Below are positions 3,181 through 10,262 of a stretch of DNA of 10,484 bases, piece after piece (the stretch's first letter is position 1; every line of letters starts with the position of its first letter). Position numbers and translations under genes: made by a program. The DNA is from Candidatus Aminicenantota bacterium (GTDB lineage: Bacteria > Acidobacteriota > Aminicenantia > UBA2199). The stretch lies in the NCBI GenBank assembly GCA_030671465.1, contig DAOVIP010000026.1:1-10484 (forward strand). The letters run 5' to 3'. A model generated the notes under the pieces. That model had not been told where the DNA came from and ran no database searches. It worked only from the letters and a program-made list of their open reading frames with translations.

Positions 3181-3996
3181 TTACTTACGTTTCTTGATAT
3201 AGATGTTGCCGTGGTGGGTTTCGAAAAATATCTCCGTGCCTCCACCGTTAAGGTTACCGTGAATGCTTTTGTCGATTCGTACCACATATTTACCTTCGAC
3301 ATTTTTCTTCTCGGTCTTGGTGGATTTGACCTGGGTTCTGATATCAAAGTCGGTATAGATATCTCCCCTTTCGGATTTCATTTTGAGACTGGCCTTGATG
3401 CTGGCCGGGAAGGTGATGTCGATATTGCCATGATAGGTAGTAAAAGACATGGGTTTGTTGGGGGTAATTTTTTTAAATCTCACCTTGATATACCCGTGGT
3501 GGGTGTTGGCCATGACATGTCCGGAAATGTCCGAGAGTTCGATGGAACCGTGATGGTTTTTAGCTTCGATTTCTCCCGAAACATTGTCAACCAGGATATT
3601 GCCATTGTGGTGACTGCCAAGATACAGAGATGTTTTAAATGGTACCTTTATATCCAGGTTGATCTTCTGGTAAAGGGAAGAAGATTGTATCTTCACGATG
3701 TTGTCTTCCTCCTCGACAACCATACCCATAGATGTGGCGGAAATACGCCTGAGTCCCTGACTTTCTTTCGTATTCCTTTCTTTAGAGATCTTTTTGGTGG
3801 ACACAACTGCTTTGACAATGACATCTTTGCCATTGTATCCGGTTACGGTGAATCCCCCTGTATGCAGATAGGCTTTGATAATACAGGGTGCATTGGGATT
3901 GCTTAGCGGAACGACGATTTCTTCAGCGACCAGCATGGTGCCGGCGAATACCATTAACACAAATAACATCAAGAAATGTTGAGCTATTTTTTTCAT
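3181..3996 (-). CDS. Exported DUF4097-family beta-repeat protein, His-rich turns (paralogue B)
   Basis: A 271-residue protein with a Sec signal peptide (about 1-24, LVA before EE). The mature part is a repeating beta-strand protein of the DUF4097 'putative adhesin' type, a family often encoded with ECF sigma/anti-sigma pairs; its function is not established. Repeat turns end in Gly at 132, 150, 168, 190, 211, 253 and 263. Several turns carry His: H129-H130, H148-H149, H166-H167, H189 and H261-H262, plus H246. The neighbouring paralogue has Asn at the matching turns. AGGAGG lies 5 nt before the ATG, a very strong site. It is 12 nt downstream of the paralogue and is the last gene of the minus-strand block. 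The His ladder might bind metal; that is inference. Confidence 0.8.
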   Translation of the reverse strand: MKKIAQHFLMLFVLMVFAGTMLVAEEIVVPLSNPNAPCIIKAYLHTGGFTVTGYNGKDVIVKAVVSTKKISKERNTKESQGLRRISATSMGMVVEEEDNIVKIQSSSLYQKINLDIKVPFKTSLYLGSHHNGNILVDNVSGEIEAKNHHGSIELSDISGHVMANTHHGYIKVRFKKITPNKPMSFTTYHGNIDITFPASIKASLKMKSERGDIYTDFDIRTQVKSTKTEKKNVEGKYVVRIDKSIHGNLNGGGTEIFFETHHGNIYIKKRK

Positions 3997-4008
3997 TTTA
4001 TCCTCCTT

Positions 4009-4860
4009 CTATTTTTGATTGATGACAATATCACCATTCAACGTACTCATTTTTATCTGGATCCCTCCATCTCCAACCCGGAGAGCGGAGAAACGATTGC
4101 TTTTGTATACAAATCGGCCATTGATTCGCTCTGGTTTGGTCGGGGCCATCGGGAGAATACGGACATCATAGGCCGAATAGATTTCTCCATTAAAGGTTTT
4201 GACCAGAAAGTCAGCCGAGGGCTTATGGGGGAAAAAAATTTCGATATCACCGTTTACGGTCTGAAAGGAGCAGCTGGCTTTGGGGTTTTTATCGAATCTG
4301 ACCTTGACCTCTCCATTCACCGTATGAGCTCTGCCCGAACCGGTAATGTTGCTCATACGGATTTTTCCATTGACATTTTTGACAATAAAATGACCGATCA
4401 AATGACTGATTTCGATATCGCCGTTATTAACGGTTTTCAGAAAAATATCAGTCTTTCTGGGAATTTGAATATCAAAATCGTACTGGACCATGTATCCGGT
4501 TTTCTCACAATTCCAGTTCAGTGAACGGTCCGGGCATCTGAAAGGCCCGTCCACAAAAATTTCAATGGCATTGTCCTTTTCTGAAATCTCAAGCTTGACT
4601 TCCCGGCAGGCCCTTTCGATTTTTTGCCTGGACCTGGCTTTGATGGTTTTTTTTGTCCGCAGGATGACCTGGTTGCCATCCCCGCCCTTTACATGGATAT
4701 ATCCGAAAACATTATCAATGAACAGGCTTTTGGGTTTGAGGGGATAGGAGAATCCGATGGTTTTTCGGATTTCCTCGGATTCCTCCTGATCCAGGCTCCA
4801 AATCTGGGCCTGGAGAATGGCCACTCCCAGTATGGCGGTAATCACAGCGATTTTTTTCAT
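4009..4860 (-). CDS. Exported DUF4097-family beta-repeat protein, Asn-rich turns (paralogue A)
   Basis: A 283-residue protein with a signal peptide at about 1-19 and the same repeating beta architecture as the next gene. Turns end in Gly at 147, 165, 183, 204, 225, 266 and 276, and most read V-N-G or L/F-N-G, the usual form in this family. Four cysteines (C85, C109, C118, C197) could form disulfides in the periplasm; the paralogue has only one. The gene follows the anti-sigma gene with a 4-nt ATGA overlap, which suggests translational coupling; GGGAG lies 7 nt upstream. The position in a sigma/anti-sigma operon suggests an envelope protein made under control of that sigma factor. No enzymatic motif is visible. 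Confidence 0.8.
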   Translation of the reverse strand: MKKIAVITAILGVAILQAQIWSLDQEESEEIRKTIGFSYPLKPKSLFIDNVFGYIHVKGGDGNQVILRTKKTIKARSRQKIERACREVKLEISEKDNAIEIFVDGPFRCPDRSLNWNCEKTGYMVQYDFDIQIPRKTDIFLKTVNNGDIEISHLIGHFIVKNVNGKIRMSNITGSGRAHTVNGEVKVRFDKNPKASCSFQTVNGDIEIFFPHKPSADFLVKTFNGEIYSAYDVRILPMAPTKPERINGRFVYKSNRFSALRVGDGGIQIKMSTLNGDIVINQK

Positions 4861-5699
4861 ATCTTTGCTCCCGCTTTATCCAGTCTTGCGATCTGTTTCA
4901 ACGATAACTCCGCCTGATTTCTGATTTCAGGTTCGAGTCTGTTCCGCTGTATGAGCTGCTTCAGGGCCTTGATGGCTCTTTTTTCCCTCAATTCCGATAT
5001 GAGATTAATCAGGCCGGATTGAACCAGGGGGGAGTTTTGTCTGGCCAGTGATTGAATGATACCCTGTTTCACCAGGGGGTGGTCACTGAAGAGATAAAGG
5101 GCATCCACAACGGCCAACCGCACATTTACATTGGGGTCATTATTGAGAGTTTGCAGTAGAGTAACCAGGGTATTGTTGCTGGGGCTTTTTACCCGTGCGC
5201 TCCAGGTTACTCCGTTGAGCCGGTCGCTGGCAGAGGATTGATTTAGCATGGAAATGGCCGCTTGCTGGCGGATATTCTGAATTTCATTTTCGAGTACTTT
5301 TAATTCTGTTTTCAAGACCTGAGGTGAAAACAAAATATATCCAGCAAAAAAGCCGGTTACGATAAAAGTCAGAGAAAATGTGAATTGCAGCAGTGGTCTC
5401 CGGACAGCCAGGGATCGGTAAATTCGGGTGATCAGATTTATCCTGGATTTCGGCTGTTTTTCAGTGTCCAATCCTTCTTTATAATCGGATAACATCGAAT
5501 AAAATTGGGTTCTCAGCTGTTTAACAGGCTGTTGTTCGGGCAATACGCCCAATTTGATCCAGATTTCATTGAGGTTTTCCAGCTCTTCCCGACAGGCCGA
5601 ACATGAGGCAATATGGTTTTTAAATGTTTCTCTTTCGTTTGCTTCCAGTTCTCCGGTCAGATAGTCGGGGATTTGGGTCTTGATATGCTTGCTACTCAT
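4857..5699 (-). CDS. Membrane anti-sigma factor: zinc finger (zf-HC2) plus transmembrane helix plus HEAT repeats
   Basis: A 280-residue protein. The N-terminal 50 residues form a ZAS/zf-HC2 domain with H29-x3-C33-x2-C36, the zinc motif of anti-sigma factors that hold ECF sigma factors at the membrane. A basic stretch precedes one transmembrane helix at about 104-124. A linker then leads to an alpha-helical region (about 176-274) with HEAT-like units starting at about N187, S223 and E256. The predicted topology is zinc finger in the cytoplasm, HEAT region outside, so the HEAT part may be the sensor. The start at 5699 shares one base with the sigma stop (TGATG) and has AGGAGG 6 nt upstream; a GTG one codon earlier is only 3 nt from that site. 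Zinc-finger call strong, HEAT call moderate. Confidence 0.82.
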   Translation of the reverse strand: MSSKHIKTQIPDYLTGELEANERETFKNHIASCSACREELENLNEIWIKLGVLPEQQPVKQLRTQFYSMLSDYKEGLDTEKQPKSRINLITRIYRSLAVRRPLLQFTFSLTFIVTGFFAGYILFSPQVLKTELKVLENEIQNIRQQAAISMLNQSSASDRLNGVTWSARVKSPSNNTLVTLLQTLNNDPNVNVRLAVVDALYLFSDHPLVKQGIIQSLARQNSPLVQSGLINLISELREKRAIKALKQLIQRNRLEPEIRNQAELSLKQIARLDKAGAKI

Positions 5700-6259
5700 C
5701 ACAATCCTCCTCTCAGTTCTATATAATTTTTTCTTAAATCCTTAATGCCCCGATGAACATTGACCTTGATCGATTCGATACTGCATTCCAGGAGTTCGGC
5801 AATTTCCCGGTATTTGAGATTTTGAAATCGGCTCAGAATAATGATTTCCCGCTTTTTAAGGGGAAGTTTTTCAAGGGCTTGTTTCAGAATTGAAATATCC
5901 TCCTGGTATTCACTTTTCTGGTCCGGCTCTATCTCTGGGGTTGCCTCCTCCTGCCACTTTTCATCCAGGGAGATTTCATTCTTGAATTTTCTCAGGTGGT
6001 CTTTATGCACATTCCTGGCGATCTGATACATCCAAAACATAAATTTGCTTTCTCCACGATAACTGGAGCGGTATTTGAGGATTCGAAAAAAGATTTCCTG
6101 TACCAGATCCTCACTGACCGAGGTATTTCTGGTTAACCGTAGCAGAAAATTGTAGAGTTTTACATGATGCCTTTCAAAAAGAATGGCCAACATTTCAACC
6201 TTGTCATTTTTTACTGCAGTCATAATATCTTCATCCGTTGAATGATTTATAAACTTCAT
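5699..6259 (-). CDS. ECF-type RNA polymerase sigma factor
   Basis: A 186-residue ECF (group 4) sigma factor. Region 2 spans about 24-93, with the core-binding DLVQEIFFRI stretch at 51-60 and the W-x-x-x-I-A-R-N segment at 76-83 that contacts the -10 element. An acidic linker (about 98-122) leads to region 4 (about 124-178), whose helix-turn-helix is near 149-170. Regions 1 and 3 are absent, as expected. The next gene overlaps by one base and encodes its likely anti-sigma partner. The ATG at 6259 has GAGG only 2 nt upstream, so translation may be weak; a TAA at 6281-6283 limits any extension. A gap of 172 nt separates it from the protease gene and may hold its own promoter. Confidence 0.92.
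   Translation of the reverse strand: MKFINHSTDEDIMTAVKNDKVEMLAILFERHHVKLYNFLLRLTRNTSVSEDLVQEIFFRILKYRSSYRGESKFMFWMYQIARNVHKDHLRKFKNEISLDEKWQEEATPEIEPDQKSEYQEDISILKQALEKLPLKKREIIILSRFQNLKYREIAELLECSIESIKVNVHRGIKDLRKNYIELRGGL
5706..5711 (-). promoter_or_regulatory. Shine-Dalgarno site inside the sigma gene that fixes the anti-sigma start
   Basis: AGGAGG lies within the last codons of the sigma gene, 6 nt before the ATG at 5699 and only 3 nt before the alternative GTG at 5702. Confidence 0.7.
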
Positions 6260-6431: not shown

Positions 6432-7799
6432 TCAATACTTGAATACCACTATTTTCCCCAGGTTTCTGGAGATGCCTTCCCGGGAATCAAAGTTACGCAC
6501 CATGGTTCGGTGTTCGTCGGCAAAAGCGTAAAATTTCACGGTTTGATTTCTGGGAACATCCAAAATGAAAAATCCCTTGTCGTCACAGCGGGTCACACCA
6601 TAGAAAAATTCACCCCGGGTATAACGCTGAACATCCGGGTGAAAAGACATATCTGAGGGTTTCTGGTTTATGATCTTTTCGATGTCGTCAACCTTAATAT
6701 TCAATTGGCGGGCAATATCGTTCGGGCTTTTCCCCTGGTTATGCATGGAATGAATAACCTTGATGCGCATATAATGCTGGAGTTCCTGATGCAGGTTTTG
6801 AATTTGTTCCAGGCTTCGGTCGTTTCGGGTCATCAAAATTTCTGCCTGGAGGGGATGCCGGCTATGCGAGGAAATGATCCATCCGGTCAGGTAAATGTGA
6901 TGACGGGTTTCATCGGTATTGTAATCATTTAACAACCACTGAAGGGGAATTTCCTGGGTGTTGAATTCAAACTTGTTGCGGGCAATAGTCAGGGCCTTTA
7001 TCGCCCAGGTAACCGGGTTGATATAACCCATGTCGGATCCGGCCAGGACCGGCGGGGTGACGGCTGTGGGCACACCGACGATTCTTTTGTTATAAAGGGC
7101 GCCCCCCCCGCTGTTTCCCGAGGACATGGCTGCATCGGTTTTAATAAATCCGTCCAGACCGTAAAAACTCCGATTTCGGTAAAAGCCCAGAAATTTCCCC
7201 TCGGTAATGGTGATGGTATCTCCCCCTTTGACCGGGTATCCGATGATGGTGATGGTTTCATTTAGCTTGATGGAAAACGGATTTCCAAATGGGGAATAGG
7301 GAAGATCCCGGGGTTTGACTTTTTTGCCCTTCACTTCTGCATATATTTTGAGCAGGGCCGTATCATGCATTTTATCCAAGCTGATTGGTGTTGCCAGGTA
7401 TTGGGTTTCCGGTGCCTTGAGCGGATCGTTGTCCTTCAAACGGTAGACCAGCATGGAATTGCTGACCCGGGTTCTGATATACAGGCGATTGATCCGGTTG
7501 TCATATCGATAGACATTGTCCATCAGGTAGACATGGTAATTGGTCAGTATCAATCCGTCCGGACTGATGATGGTTCCAGAACCCACCGGGGTTTCTTCAA
7601 TACGTTCTTGAATCAGTTCTCCATTATGAATGATCTTTTTGGCTTTGGCATCCACGGTTGGATTTTTGTATATCGATACTTTAACCAGGTGGCCCAGCTG
7701 AACGTAGGGAGTTACGTCATCGGGAATACTCTCGGCGCTCAACTGAAATCCAGCAAGTATGAAAACAATTGAACAGATAATCTGAGTTTTTTTGAACAT
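6432..7799 (-). CDS. Secreted trypsin-like (HtrA/S1C-type) serine protease with unusual C-terminal region
   Basis: A 455-residue protein with a Sec signal peptide (about 1-22, LSA before ES). The protease domain covers about 70-280 and has the full catalytic triad: H89 in TNYHV, D146 in HDTALL and S230 in GNSGGG. No PDZ domain follows, unlike DegP/DegS. Instead residues about 300-455 look like a beta-sandwich resembling carboxypeptidase-regulatory or CNA-B domains, interrupted by a helical stretch (about 328-380) that contains a helix-turn-helix-like IARQLNIKVDDIEKI segment (362-376). The gene starts 10 nt after the PrsW-like gene, with GAGG 5 nt upstream, and lies ahead of the sigma/anti-sigma pair. 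A role as site-1-like protease for the anti-sigma factor, or in envelope quality control, is inference. Confidence 0.85.
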   Translation of the reverse strand: MFKKTQIICSIVFILAGFQLSAESIPDDVTPYVQLGHLVKVSIYKNPTVDAKAKKIIHNGELIQERIEETPVGSGTIISPDGLILTNYHVYLMDNVYRYDNRINRLYIRTRVSNSMLVYRLKDNDPLKAPETQYLATPISLDKMHDTALLKIYAEVKGKKVKPRDLPYSPFGNPFSIKLNETITIIGYPVKGGDTITITEGKFLGFYRNRSFYGLDGFIKTDAAMSSGNSGGGALYNKRIVGVPTAVTPPVLAGSDMGYINPVTWAIKALTIARNKFEFNTQEIPLQWLLNDYNTDETRHHIYLTGWIISSHSRHPLQAEILMTRNDRSLEQIQNLHQELQHYMRIKVIHSMHNQGKSPNDIARQLNIKVDDIEKIINQKPSDMSFHPDVQRYTRGEFFYGVTRCDDKGFFILDVPRNQTVKFYAFADEHRTMVRNFDSREGISRNLGKIVVFKY

Positions 7800-7809
7800 G
7801 GTTACCTCA

Positions 7810-9210
7810 CTATTTTCCCGTCCAACTCAGGCCGGATACAATTCTATTGTATTTGATGATTCCGGCCTCGAATTCCGAGCTGGGTGTCGTAAAGGTAAAT
7901 ATAAAATGACTGTTTTTAACCGGGATAATATCGGTGATTACCTTGATCAGGGTGGGGAATTCAACCGATTTCAGGGAGGGTGCTTCCAGGTAACTCCAGG
8001 CAATTCTCTTTCCCCTTTTCTGGCCGATCACTACATTCTGAATCCGCATGCTCTCGGTTTTGGGGAATGATATAAAGGACATCAACTGGCTATTATCCAG
8101 TTTGCCGGCATCTTTTTTGACTTCGAGTTTGAGTCGGAAACGGGGGTGTCCGATATGATTCCGGCTGAAGAGAGTCTCGGTACTGCTGCTGGTCAGATGA
8201 AAGTCCCGGGATAGCCCCTGGAACCCAGGGGATGAAAGTGCATGGGGGTAATTGAAGCTGATTCCGTACTGGGAATTGATATATTGCAGGCCCCCGCAAC
8301 CATTGGCGGCAATGACCGATCCGGTTATGAATAGCCCGGCCGTATAAACCAGCATCAGCGGTCTGAACTGAAAACGATGCCGCCTGGATTTATCCGGTCT
8401 GATTCTGGTTAATCTCTTCATCTTGAAGGTACAGAAGATCAGAATCAGTATGGTATAGAACATGGTGAAGATAAAGGACAGCCAGAATACCTGGGGAAGG
8501 CCAGCTACAAACAAAAATTCATTGATAACAAGATAGAAGCCCAACAAAAGAATTCCGAGCGTTACCCCCATTACCGAGTACATCTGAAAACTTCTTTTTA
8601 AAAACTTGGCCTTGCCAATGTAGTGCCCCATCAGAGATCCCACGGCTGAAAAAGCCATCACTTTGGTGGTGATTATATAGGCTATGACAAAAAGTGTATA
8701 ATCGGGATGAATCCAAAGTTCCTGCACTGCCTGGGCCACTGCATATCCGGCACCGGTCACCGCCCCGTACACCATACCGTCAACCGGTTCATCAAATTCT
8801 TTCAAAGGCATGATCCCGAAACGTATGAATCCGAATAATACCAGAGAGAAAACCATAGCTTTTACCAGGAACGATCCCTGGACAAACAGAAACATAGAGG
8901 CATGAATCCACTCATTTGCCTGATATATGAGATTGATGAGGGGATGGCCGAGCAGGGCCCAGGCTGCCATACCGGCGATAAAGGTGGCAATAATATAGGG
9001 TATCGGTTCGGGTTTGCGGCGATCCTGCAGATAAAAAAACCAGACCCAAACCAAACCGGAAACCAGAGCCATGGAGGCCAGAATAAGGAACCTCAGGCCC
9101 TGGTGTACTCCCAGCCTGGATTCAAAACCCAGCAGGAACATGATGGTTAAAAACAGAAGCTGGAATATCAAATTGAAAATCCCACTTTTGAATGCATTTG
9201 TCAACCGCAT
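7810..9210 (-). CDS. PrsW-like multi-pass membrane protein with apparently lost active site and a C-terminal extracytoplasmic domain
   Basis: A 466-residue protein. Residues 1-303 hold about nine hydrophobic segments and match the PrsW (PF13367-type) framework: a Y-x-x-D-x4-EP motif (Y60 to P69), DEPVDG-x-VYG at 140-149, and MG-x-Y-x-GKAKF at about 194-203. PrsW of Bacillus subtilis is the membrane protease that cuts anti-sigma factor RsiW. Here the metal and catalytic residues are replaced: EE of EExxK becomes S113-F114 (K117 kept), the Glu of LGFAxxEN becomes Q160, and the His before the second GKA motif becomes F187. After a last helix (about 285-303), residues 305-466 form a soluble domain with a YGISFNYP opening (315-322), reminiscent of PsbP/DcrB-like domains. 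The ATG has GGAGG 7 nt upstream; a TTG one codon earlier is only 4 nt away. First gene of the block. Fold assignment good, function unknown. Confidence 0.75.
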   Translation of the reverse strand: MRLTNAFKSGIFNLIFQLLFLTIMFLLGFESRLGVHQGLRFLILASMALVSGLVWVWFFYLQDRRKPEPIPYIIATFIAGMAAWALLGHPLINLIYQANEWIHASMFLFVQGSFLVKAMVFSLVLFGFIRFGIMPLKEFDEPVDGMVYGAVTGAGYAVAQAVQELWIHPDYTLFVIAYIITTKVMAFSAVGSLMGHYIGKAKFLKRSFQMYSVMGVTLGILLLGFYLVINEFLFVAGLPQVFWLSFIFTMFYTILILIFCTFKMKRLTRIRPDKSRRHRFQFRPLMLVYTAGLFITGSVIAANGCGGLQYINSQYGISFNYPHALSSPGFQGLSRDFHLTSSSTETLFSRNHIGHPRFRLKLEVKKDAGKLDNSQLMSFISFPKTESMRIQNVVIGQKRGKRIAWSYLEAPSLKSVEFPTLIKVITDIIPVKNSHFIFTFTTPSSEFEAGIIKYNRIVSGLSWTGK

Positions 9211-9341: not shown

Positions 9342-10262
9342 GTGTTCAAACTGAAATCTTTTGCCAAAATCAACCTGGGCCTGGAGGTCATTGGAAAAAG
9401 AGAAGATGGTTATCATGACCTGAAGACCATATTTCAAACCATTGATTTTTTTGATGTATTGAAGTTGACAGAGAATAAATCCGGAAAAATCAAGATAAGC
9501 GGAAATAACCGGGATATTGATTGGGGCAGACAGAATACGGTTTCCAAGGCCTTTCAAACCATTTATGAAAATTATGAGGTCAGCCAGGGATTTACCGTAC
9601 AGGTCGAGAAAAATATACCCCCCGGATCCGGGCTTGGCGGAGGCAGTAGCAATGCCGCGGTGATTCTTCTTTTTTTGAATGAATATTTCAGCCTGAATAT
9701 TAAGCCGGAGGAGCTGATAGACATGGGCAAAAATATCGGTGCTGATGTGCCTTTTTTTTTCATGGGCGGCACGGTTTTGGGCCAGGGGATAGGGGAGAAG
9801 ATTAGAAGAATCAAAGATCTGGAAGAGACCCGGATTGCGATGCTTATTTCTGATATTCAGGTCCCAACCGGATTAATTTTTTCCCGGTTTGGCTTGACAT
9901 CTGTTCCATTTGAAAGTAAAATAGATATCTTTTTGAAAACAAGAAATTGGAAAGTTTTTGAGAATAATCTGGAATCAATTACATTTCAATTATTTCCAGA
10001 AATTCAGAGAATAAAGGAAAAAATGCAGTCCTATGGAAGCGATTTGGTTATGATGAGTGGCAGTGGCTCGACAGTGTTTTGCACTACGGAAAATTGTTCG
10101 CTCAGCCGCTTGAAGAAAGATTTTCCAGGAATTATTCTCACCAGAACCATTGATTTCAATACTTATCATCATCATATTGGGGCGTGGCCAAGCGGAAAGG
10201 CATCGGTTTTTGGAGCCGACATTCGGAGGTTCGAATCCTCCCGCCCCAGGAGTAAAACATGA
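9342..10262 (+). CDS. ispE: 4-diphosphocytidyl-2-C-methyl-D-erythritol kinase, reading frame running through a tRNA gene
   Basis: IspE phosphorylates CDP-methylerythritol with ATP, the fourth step of the MEP isoprenoid pathway, in the cytoplasm. It is a GHMP kinase with K9 in the N-terminal AKINLGL motif, the ATP-binding loop PPGSGLGGGSSNAA at 93-106, the catalytic Asp D135 in GADVPFF, and the C-terminal MSGSGSTVF motif at 238-246. The start is GTG with GGAG 6 nt upstream. The kinase fold ends by about residue 278, close to the 283 residues of E. coli IspE. Yet no stop codon occurs before the tRNA-Gln gene: residues 279-306 are encoded by the tRNA and the prs ribosome site, and the TGA overlaps the prs ATG. 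Enzyme call is very sure; whether the tail is made is open. Confidence 0.93.
   Translation: MFKLKSFAKINLGLEVIGKREDGYHDLKTIFQTIDFFDVLKLTENKSGKIKISGNNRDIDWGRQNTVSKAFQTIYENYEVSQGFTVQVEKNIPPGSGLGGGSSNAAVILLFLNEYFSLNIKPEELIDMGKNIGADVPFFFMGGTVLGQGIGEKIRRIKDLEETRIAMLISDIQVPTGLIFSRFGLTSVPFESKIDIFLKTRNWKVFENNLESITFQLFPEIQRIKEKMQSYGSDLVMMSGSGSTVFCTTENCSLSRLKKDFPGIILTRTIDFNTYHHHIGAWPSGKASVFGADIRRFESSRPRSKT
10178..10249 (+). tRNA. trnQ: tRNA-Gln (anticodon TTG)
   Basis: A complete 72-nt cloverleaf. The acceptor stem pairs TGGGGCG (10178-10184) with CGCCCCA (10242-10248), including the weak U1-A72 pair typical of tRNA-Gln, and G73 is the discriminator. The D stem is GCC/GGC, the anticodon stem TCGGT/GCCGA holds loop TTTTGGA with anticodon TTG at 10210-10212, the variable region has 5 nt, and the T stem GGAGG/CCTCC holds loop TTCGAAT. 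CCA is not encoded, so it must be added by nucleotidyltransferase. The D loop closely resembles that of E. coli tRNA-Gln. There is no promoter just before it, so it is probably made from the ispE-prs transcript. Confidence 0.96.
10248..10252 (+). promoter_or_regulatory. prs Shine-Dalgarno site overlapping the tRNA 3' end
   Basis: AGGAG lies 6 nt before the prs ATG. Its first two bases are A72 and G73 of tRNA-Gln, so folding or 3' cleavage of the tRNA would hide or shorten the ribosome site. Confidence 0.7.

What the first reader, a model, noticed from the sequence alone, without database searches (positions are those of the whole stretch)
7810..9210. PrsW homologue that appears to have lost its catalytic residues, encoded with an anti-sigma factor
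The PrsW scaffold is clear (Y-x-x-D-x4-EP, DEPVDG-x-VYG, MG-x-Y-x-GKAKF), but the residues expected to do the chemistry are changed: EExxK reads S113-F114-L-V-K117, the Glu of the LGFAxxEN motif is Q160, and the His ahead of the second motif is F187 (a further His probably L227). The surrounding framework is intact, so this looks like a selected pseudoprotease rather than a decaying gene. Since active PrsW cuts an anti-sigma factor, an inactive form beside an anti-sigma gene might bind and shield it or act as a sensor, as rhomboid pseudoproteases do. The comparison with B. subtilis PrsW is from memory.
Basis: partly seen in the sequence, partly recalled or inferred. Interest (0 to 1): 0.75.

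Follow-up and report, generated by a model that had tools for sequence, protein, structure and literature searches.

The report
Dead membrane protease paired with protease
A bacterial membrane protein built like the protease PrsW has lost its cutting residues, and in distantly related bacteria its gene sits beside one for an intact secreted protease, which suggests that it now holds or controls that enzyme, much as inactive membrane proteins do in human protease complexes.

Summary
None of 81 window-type proteins with letters there has Glu at 121 or 122, so this is a kept pseudoprotease. The anti-sigma link is weak: an ECF sigma gene lies near 2 of 10 such loci. The steady partner is the next gene, a secreted trypsin-like (S1) protease with an intact triad, adjacent in 9 of 10; in 142 class genomes the two genes co-occur. 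The C-terminal third is an extracytoplasmic PsbP-like domain. In Chloroflexi it is a separate gene between the other two; in Myxococcota it appears fused to S1; in one Chloroflexi group an M4 metalloprotease stands in for S1. These PrsWs form one clade in a quick tree. Of 140 Chloroflexota PrsW loci, 0 of 112 with EE had a module-type protease neighbour, against 9 of 28 others. Best reading: a non-catalytic PrsW that scaffolds or regulates exchangeable secreted proteases, working like APH-1 or iRhom. Physical interaction is inferred, not shown.

The parts
7810..9210 (-). pseudo-PrsW::PsbP-like fusion protein (466 aa): 9 predicted TM helices (residues 1-305), then an extracytoplasmic domain (306-466)
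   Evidence: AF2 models pLDDT 85.5 and 88.6 for the membrane part alone; loop charges
8296..9210 (-). PrsW-fold membrane part, residues 1-305
8836..8850 (-). position of EExxK, here F121-S122-L123-V124-L125
   Evidence: MAFFT column map with EExxK and QExxK relatives
8728..8733 (-). position of the E-N pair of LGFxxxEN, here Q160-A161
8650..8652 (-). position of the first conserved His, here F187
   Evidence: Tyr in 72, Phe in 6, His in 5 of 83 window-type rows
8518..8532 (-). position of HxxxD/N, here L227...E231; His is kept in 58 of 83 window-type rows
7813..8295 (-). PsbP/Mog1/DcrB-fold domain, residues 306-466, predicted outside the membrane
6432..7799 (-). partner: trypsin-like (S1) protease with a signal-peptide-like start, 455 aa, ATG 11 bases after the pseudo-PrsW stop with an SD-like AGGT between them; no PDZ match
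   Evidence: Pfam Trypsin_2 E=9e-18; sequence; adjacency; co-occurrence
7110..7535 (-). stretch holding the S1 catalytic triad H89 (7533-7535), D146 (7362-7364), S230 (7110-7112)
   Evidence: H and D in 34 of 34 rows, S in 33 of 33 that reach it
6435..6917 (-). C-terminal CarboxypepD_reg-like region of the S1 partner with an HTH-like insert (approximate limits; no Pfam CarboxypepD_reg match in the window protein itself)
   Evidence: profile of 8 window-type S1 C-termini against C-termini of the M4 partners, hhalign E=2e-8, prob 95
5699..6259 (-). neighbour, not judged part of the module: ECF sigma factor
   Evidence: Pfam; near 2 of 10 window-type loci
4857..5702 (-). neighbour, not judged part of the module: zf-HC2 anti-sigma factor with HEAT repeats
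   Evidence: Pfam

Best explanation
The gene encodes a catalytically dead PrsW that forms the membrane part of a conserved module: (1) a pseudo-PrsW in the membrane, (2) an extracytoplasmic PsbP-like domain, here fused to it, and a secreted protease with an intact active site and a C-terminal CarboxypepD_reg-like (CDR) domain, here of the S1 family. Most likely the pseudo-PrsW with its PsbP domain binds the partner protease at the membrane face and tethers, matures or restrains it, as iRhom does for ADAM17 and as the PrsW relative APH-1 does in gamma-secretase. Shown here by computation: loss of the catalytic residues across a clade, an intact protease partner, adjacency and co-occurrence, the fusion arrangements, and replacement of the protease class with the rest kept. 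Inferred: physical contact, the direction of control, and the substrate.
For: No Glu at 121/122 in the 81 of 83 window-type rows with letters there. S1 gene next downstream in 9 of 10 window-type loci: window, L031-L036, L038, L039. Outside the window type, S1 directly downstream in 21 of the 27 loci L040-L066 and 2.5-2.8 kb on in 3 more (L041, L043, L044), against 0 of 17 in L067, L069-L084, 15 of which have EE. In 142 class genomes the S1 orthologue (E<=1e-30) is in 6: the 5 with the long pseudo-PrsW plus G412, whose contig starts inside the pseudo-PrsW C-terminus. S1 triad intact. The PsbP-like domain is fused to PrsW (window type), stand-alone between PrsW and S1 (Chloroflexi, hhalign E=6e-12, 54), or fused to S1 (Myxococcota, E=7e-9 against the combined profile). 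In one Chloroflexi clade an M4 metalloprotease replaces S1, with the CDR-like domain shared (E=4e-23) and PsbP kept. 47 rows filed as module plus L058 form one clade, SH-aLRT 95; 35 of the 47 have a shown protease or CDR neighbour. In 140 Chloroflexota PrsW hits a module-type neighbour occurs at 0 of 112 EE against 9 of 28 others, Fisher p=1.6e-7 (S1 alone 4 of 28, p=0.0013), not corrected for kinship. Topology puts PsbP and S1 on the same side. APH-1 carries QExxR where PrsW has EExxK (PMC6588880, passages); many relatives here carry QExxK (51).
Confidence: 0.55

Rival explanations
1. The protein works as a receptor or delivery factor: its emptied active-site cavity still binds transmembrane segments and hands substrates to the S1 or M4 protease, which makes the first (site-1) cut outside the membrane.
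For: The invariant columns are largely old PrsW framework (QDR...EP, DEPVDG); a protease of either class would serve as cutter.
Against: No substrate gene was seen to travel with the module; ECF sigma genes are near only 2 of 10 window-type loci.
Confidence: 0.2
2. It is still an active intramembrane protease that uses other residues.
For: H227 is kept in 58 and E231 in 73 of 83 window-type rows; QExxK members keep one Glu and the Lys, and some keep the first His (51).
Against: No Glu at the EExxK site in the 81 window-type rows with letters there; the window protein lacks both His positions and yet keeps the partner; the site varies between subclades (QE, WQ, RQ, ET, xS).
Confidence: 0.08
3. 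One reading: a dead PrsW binds and shields the anti-sigma factor encoded nearby.
For: A zf-HC2 anti-sigma factor with a TM-like stretch lies further down on the same strand; KSB1 locus L033 also has an ECF sigma gene, and by eye an anti-sigma gene, just upstream.
Against: 2 of 10 window-type loci against a background of 11 of 140; not seen in the same-genus locus L031. The genome has two other PrsWs with EExxK (11, 16, 17).
Confidence: 0.06
4. The module serves something other than control of proteolysis, such as export or anchoring of CDR-domain surface proteins, and the protease domain is one passenger among several.
For: In L041, L043, L044 and L053 the PrsW::PsbP fusion is followed by a CDR-like protein in which no protease domain was found (Pfam run on L041 and L053; L043 and L044 by profile); the protease class is exchangeable. 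A CPBP-type relative, myxosortase, sorts surface proteins (title and abstract start in listing, 62; its kinship to PrsW is recalled).
Against: A protease adjoins most other members, and L041, L043 and L044 also hold a QEFLK PrsW, a PsbP-like ORF and an S1 ORF further along.
Confidence: 0.11

Closest known systems
PrsW (B. subtilis site-1 protease of RsiW; PF13367, NF033739)
   Same: membrane fold and framework motifs
   Different: no EExxK, no Glu of LGFxxxEN, no first His, an extra PsbP domain, paired with a secreted protease
APH-1 of gamma-secretase, and TMEM147 of the BOS complex (that 7tm3 chain 6 and 9c7u chain C are TMEM147 is recalled; PMC7505659 passages model TMEM147-nicalin on APH1-nicastrin)
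   Different: eukaryotic; no PsbP domain; no sequence match found; here the partner is an S1 or M4 protease
iRhom1/2 with ADAM17
   Same: catalytically dead membrane protease with an added extracellular domain that controls an active protease (PMC11248996 abstract)
   Different: rhomboid fold, eukaryotic; no shared ancestry with PrsW implied
DegS/HtrA site-1 proteases (for the partner gene)
   Same: trypsin-like domain, matched by DegP/DegS models far below their cut-offs
   Different: no PDZ match; a CDR-like region instead; encoded with pseudo-PrsW

Membership tests
PrsW glutamic-type intramembrane proteases | sequence profile of the family | tested here: inconclusive
   NF033739 E=6e-13 but 48.9 of 225 bits; PF13367 15.4 of 23.5 bits
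PrsW glutamic-type intramembrane proteases | EExxK motif | tested here: not met
   F121-S122-L-V-L125; no Glu at either place in the 81 of 83 window-type rows with letters there
PrsW glutamic-type intramembrane proteases | conserved His of TMH5 and HxxxD of TMH6 (as given in PMC4602095, passages) | tested here: not met
   F187 and L227 in the window protein
PrsW glutamic-type intramembrane proteases | cleaves a membrane anti-sigma factor | not testable with these tools
   needs biochemistry
APH-1 / BOS-type scaffold | APH-1 fold | tested here: met
APH-1 / BOS-type scaffold | sequence homology to APH-1 | tested here: inconclusive
   no APH-1 chain with profiles A2, A3 and no Aph-1 among the 25 Pfam families shown for A3; weak relatives may be missed
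APH-1 / BOS-type scaffold | stable complex with a peptidase-fold ectodomain protein | not testable with these tools
   gene pairing only
iRhom pseudoproteases | rhomboid fold | tested here: not met
   PrsW profile and APH-1-type fold
PsbP/Mog1/DcrB fold (C-terminal domain) | fold | tested here: met
HtrA/DegS proteases (partner gene) | trypsin domain with a C-terminal PDZ domain | tested here: not met
   trypsin domain present, no PDZ match among Pfam matches up to E=1

The most novel reading that the evidence does not exclude
This is a prokaryotic counterpart of the APH-1/nicastrin/presenilin and TMEM147/nicalin/NOMO complexes: a dead PrsW scaffold (QExxK or further decayed, as APH-1 is QExxR) holds exchangeable extracytoplasmic peptidases through PsbP and CDR domains, and the bacterial clade is close to the source from which the eukaryotic scaffolds arose.
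Probability: 0.1. Interest if true: 0.95.

Novelty: new variant of a known kind. Interest (0 to 1): 0.72.

Why it matters
Dead membrane proteases that run a second, live protease are known best from animals (iRhom with ADAM17, APH-1 in gamma-secretase). A bacterial case with loss of the active site across a clade, three fusion arrangements and a swap of protease class would show that the arrangement arose in prokaryotes too, and would give simple systems in which to ask how such scaffolds control proteases. It also warns that some genes annotated 'PrsW family protease' may not be proteases: 28 of 140 Chloroflexota hits lack the EE pair, though some of these keep the other site residues.

Tried and rejected
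Anti-sigma partnership: set aside, since an ECF sigma gene is near only 2 of 10 window-type loci (several contigs end within 1-4 kb) with 11 of 140 as background; one also lies 2.6-2.7 kb from L041 and L044. Decaying gene: rejected, conserved full-length relatives. A metal site elsewhere in the fold: among the columns looked at, no conserved Glu/His set other than H227 and E231, which the window protein only half keeps. dN/dS: not attempted; the nearest relative with DNA in hand is 59% identical.

An early match of the S1 profile to large ORFs upstream of the WQ/RQ group (42-49 bits) first looked like S1; inspection showed that it comes from the shared C-terminal domain, and Pfam names the protease of L257 M4. 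Pfam was run for L257 alone; the other four were judged by HEFTH and the shared C-terminus. M4 genes were not searched for separately in the 140 loci, only through the S1/CDR profile.

Sequence links to APH-1 or any solved PrsW structure: none found. Foldseek with the membrane part alone gave no significant match; VIA ranked APH-1 and BOS/translocon chains first.

Rows dropped or chosen: rows of the 100-row tree were picked by hand, 34 of the EE rows as a sample; its 47 'module' rows include 12 without a shown partner (L037, L040, L244 and nine proteins known only as sequences); P0006 was left out because it is identical to L031. L064, L066, L085, L204 and L239 were dropped from the 200-row tree. 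13 of the 140 Chloroflexota loci have under 2 kb on one side. The PF13367 sample favours canonical PrsWs, as the window protein scores under that cut-off. The own-phylum control (52 loci, 47 with an EExxK ORF, no S1 hit) has flanks of about 1.5 kb and repeats some places. Linkage p-values are not corrected for kinship.

Papers: passages read in PMC6588880, PMC4602095, PMC3482391, PMC12067869, PMC7505659, PMC8327139; outline and abstract of PMC11248996; others in search listings only. Ellermeier and Losick 2006 and Pei 2011 were not read; PMC3155266 is not held. Among the papers listed in searches (only one search listed every match) none is titled as describing this module; the library is open-access only, so that is not proof of absence. 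That NOMO has CDR-type repeats is recalled (PMC8327139 passages say Ig folds).

Full report
What was checked. The ORF at 7810-9210 on the minus strand is real, 466 aa, with a good ribosome site. Profiles put it in the PrsW family but below curated cut-offs. A protein search returned 86 relatives; 82 are of the same long type (70 of 460-480 aa, the rest mostly fragments), and of the five among them whose source names an organism four say Aminicenantes and one only 'bacterium'. With the window protein that makes 83 rows.

The catalytic residues. I aligned the PrsW domain of the window, relatives with QExxK, and canonical EExxK PrsWs. EExxK falls on F121-S122-L123-V124-L125; the spacing from the motif to DEP and the conserved Arg (R130) fit without a gap. 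Position 160 is Glu in 2, position 187 His in 5, position 227 His in 58 and Leu in 3 including the window, position 231 Glu in 73.

The partner. I read the neighbours in eight further window-type loci with named records (L031-L038: Aminicenantes three times, KSB1, Krumholzibacteriota, Ignavibacteria, Cloacimonadota, Acidobacteriota) and in a divergent ninth (L039). The next gene downstream is a trypsin-like protease related to window 6432-7799 in eight of these nine; in L037 the contig ends 858 bases on and the ORF there is unrelated. With the window that is 9 of 10. In all 142 class genomes held, the long pseudo-PrsW is in 5 (G000, G468, G425, G413, G409; four of these are the same contigs as L031, L032, L034 and L038) and the S1 orthologue in those 5 plus G412. 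In G412 the first 39 bases of the contig encode ILNSVRWDEAAR and a stop, the pseudo-PrsW C-terminus, just before the S1 start. The S1 triad is intact: H and D in 34 of 34 rows, S in 33 of 33 that reach it (L054 is cut; L204 repeats L045). The window S1 starts with a signal-peptide-like stretch and several Chloroflexi ones look like lipoproteins (read by eye).

The protease can be changed. In a Chloroflexi group with WQ, RQ or YQ in place of EE (L238, L243, L244, L248, L254, L257), five of six have upstream a large protein with HEFTH (cut at its start in L243); for L257 Pfam names it peptidase M4 (E=6e-43). Five of six have a PsbP-like gene downstream, homologous to the Chloroflexi middle gene (E=3e-28). 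The C-terminal domain of these M4 proteins matches that of the Chloroflexi S1 partners (E=4e-23) and that of the window-type S1 proteins (E=2e-8); the window-type and Chloroflexi S1 C-termini match each other at E=2e-5, prob 77. I call it CDR-like because Pfam CarboxypepD_reg matches L041, L042, L052, L053 and L060, all below its cut-off; window, L033 and L257 have no such match. In L041, L043, L044 and L053 a PrsW::PsbP fusion with ETFI or EAFI is followed by a CDR-like protein without a protease domain found; the first three also hold a QEFLK PrsW, a PsbP-like ORF and an S1 ORF further on.

Control and tree. A search of 121 Chloroflexota genomes gave 140 PF13367 places, all fetched with up to 5.5 kb on each side. 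112 keep EE; none has a hit to the S1/CDR profile in its locus. Of the other 28, 4 (QEFLK) have S1 downstream and 5 (WQ/RQ/YQ) have the M4 gene upstream; Fisher p=1.6e-7, or 0.0013 for S1 alone, without correction for kinship. 19 of the 28 have neither. In a 100-row tree with the motif columns removed and rows picked by hand, 47 rows filed as module (35 with a shown protease or CDR neighbour) and L058 (QELVK, no S1 found) form one clade with SH-aLRT 95, among EExxK PrsWs. A 200-row FastTree is less tidy: EE needs 7 changes and the linked label 12, with window-type rows of unknown context as a separate group and long-branch warnings. A single origin of the altered state in this module is thus favoured by a quick tree, not proven.

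The anti-sigma question. An ECF sigma gene is within 5.5 kb of 2 of 10 window-type loci (window, L033) and of 11 of 140 Chloroflexota PrsW loci; several of the 10 contigs end within 1-4 kb. In L031, of the same genus, the S1 gene is followed by an ORF that reads like an aminotransferase and by the LolB-like gene. The genome has two other PrsWs with EExxK and LGF/AGFxxxEN on other contigs. The anti-sigma factor is thus a neighbour of the module, not a fixed part.

Conclusion. The finding is right that this is a kept pseudo-PrsW. What it belongs to is a three-part module with a live secreted protease. I put 0.55 on the scaffold/regulator reading, 0.2 on a substrate-delivery version, 0.11 on a non-proteolytic or sorting role, 0.08 on residual activity, and 0.06 on the anti-sigma shield.

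Noticed in passing
L131, L176, L187, L236, L244, L245-L247, L249-L253, L255, L256, L258-L261 (Chloroflexota): 19 of 140 PF13367 proteins lack the EE pair and have no S1/M4 partner found (QEVLK, AQxLM, QQxF, QESFK groups and others; L244 belongs to the module clade). Several genomes carry two such genes. Other pseudo-PrsW lines may exist.
   Followed up: no
L042, L047, L052 and the L238-L257 group, N-terminus of the PrsW protein: Several Chloroflexi pseudo-PrsWs begin with a cysteine/histidine-rich LIM-like or zinc-ribbon stretch (CC.C...C..H, by eye); one of 18 members of A3 matches Pfam LIM at E=0.002.
   Followed up: no
window 6435-6917: The C-terminal region of the S1 partner holds an HTH-like insert (weak HTH matches at residues 338-378) in an apparently secreted protein.
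   Followed up: no
window 9342-10262 and 10177-10250: The IspE-like reading frame runs through the tRNA-Gln gene on the same strand, so its last residues come from tRNA sequence; the true end or overlap is unclear.
   Followed up: no
L120 5604-6281 and 8372-10182: One of the genome's canonical EExxK PrsWs lies 2-4 kb from a sigma-like ORF and a zinc-finger, TM-bearing anti-sigma-like ORF (by eye), perhaps a likelier PrsW and anti-sigma pair than the one in the window.
   Followed up: partly
window 3181-5702: Anti-sigma factor with C-terminal HEAT repeats followed by two DUF4097 (toastrack) proteins; no such block follows S1 in the same-genus locus L031.
   Followed up: partly
L041, L043, L044: Clusters with two pseudo-PrsW genes: a PrsW::PsbP fusion plus a CDR-like protein, then a QEFLK PrsW, a PsbP-like ORF and an S1 ORF.
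   Followed up: partly
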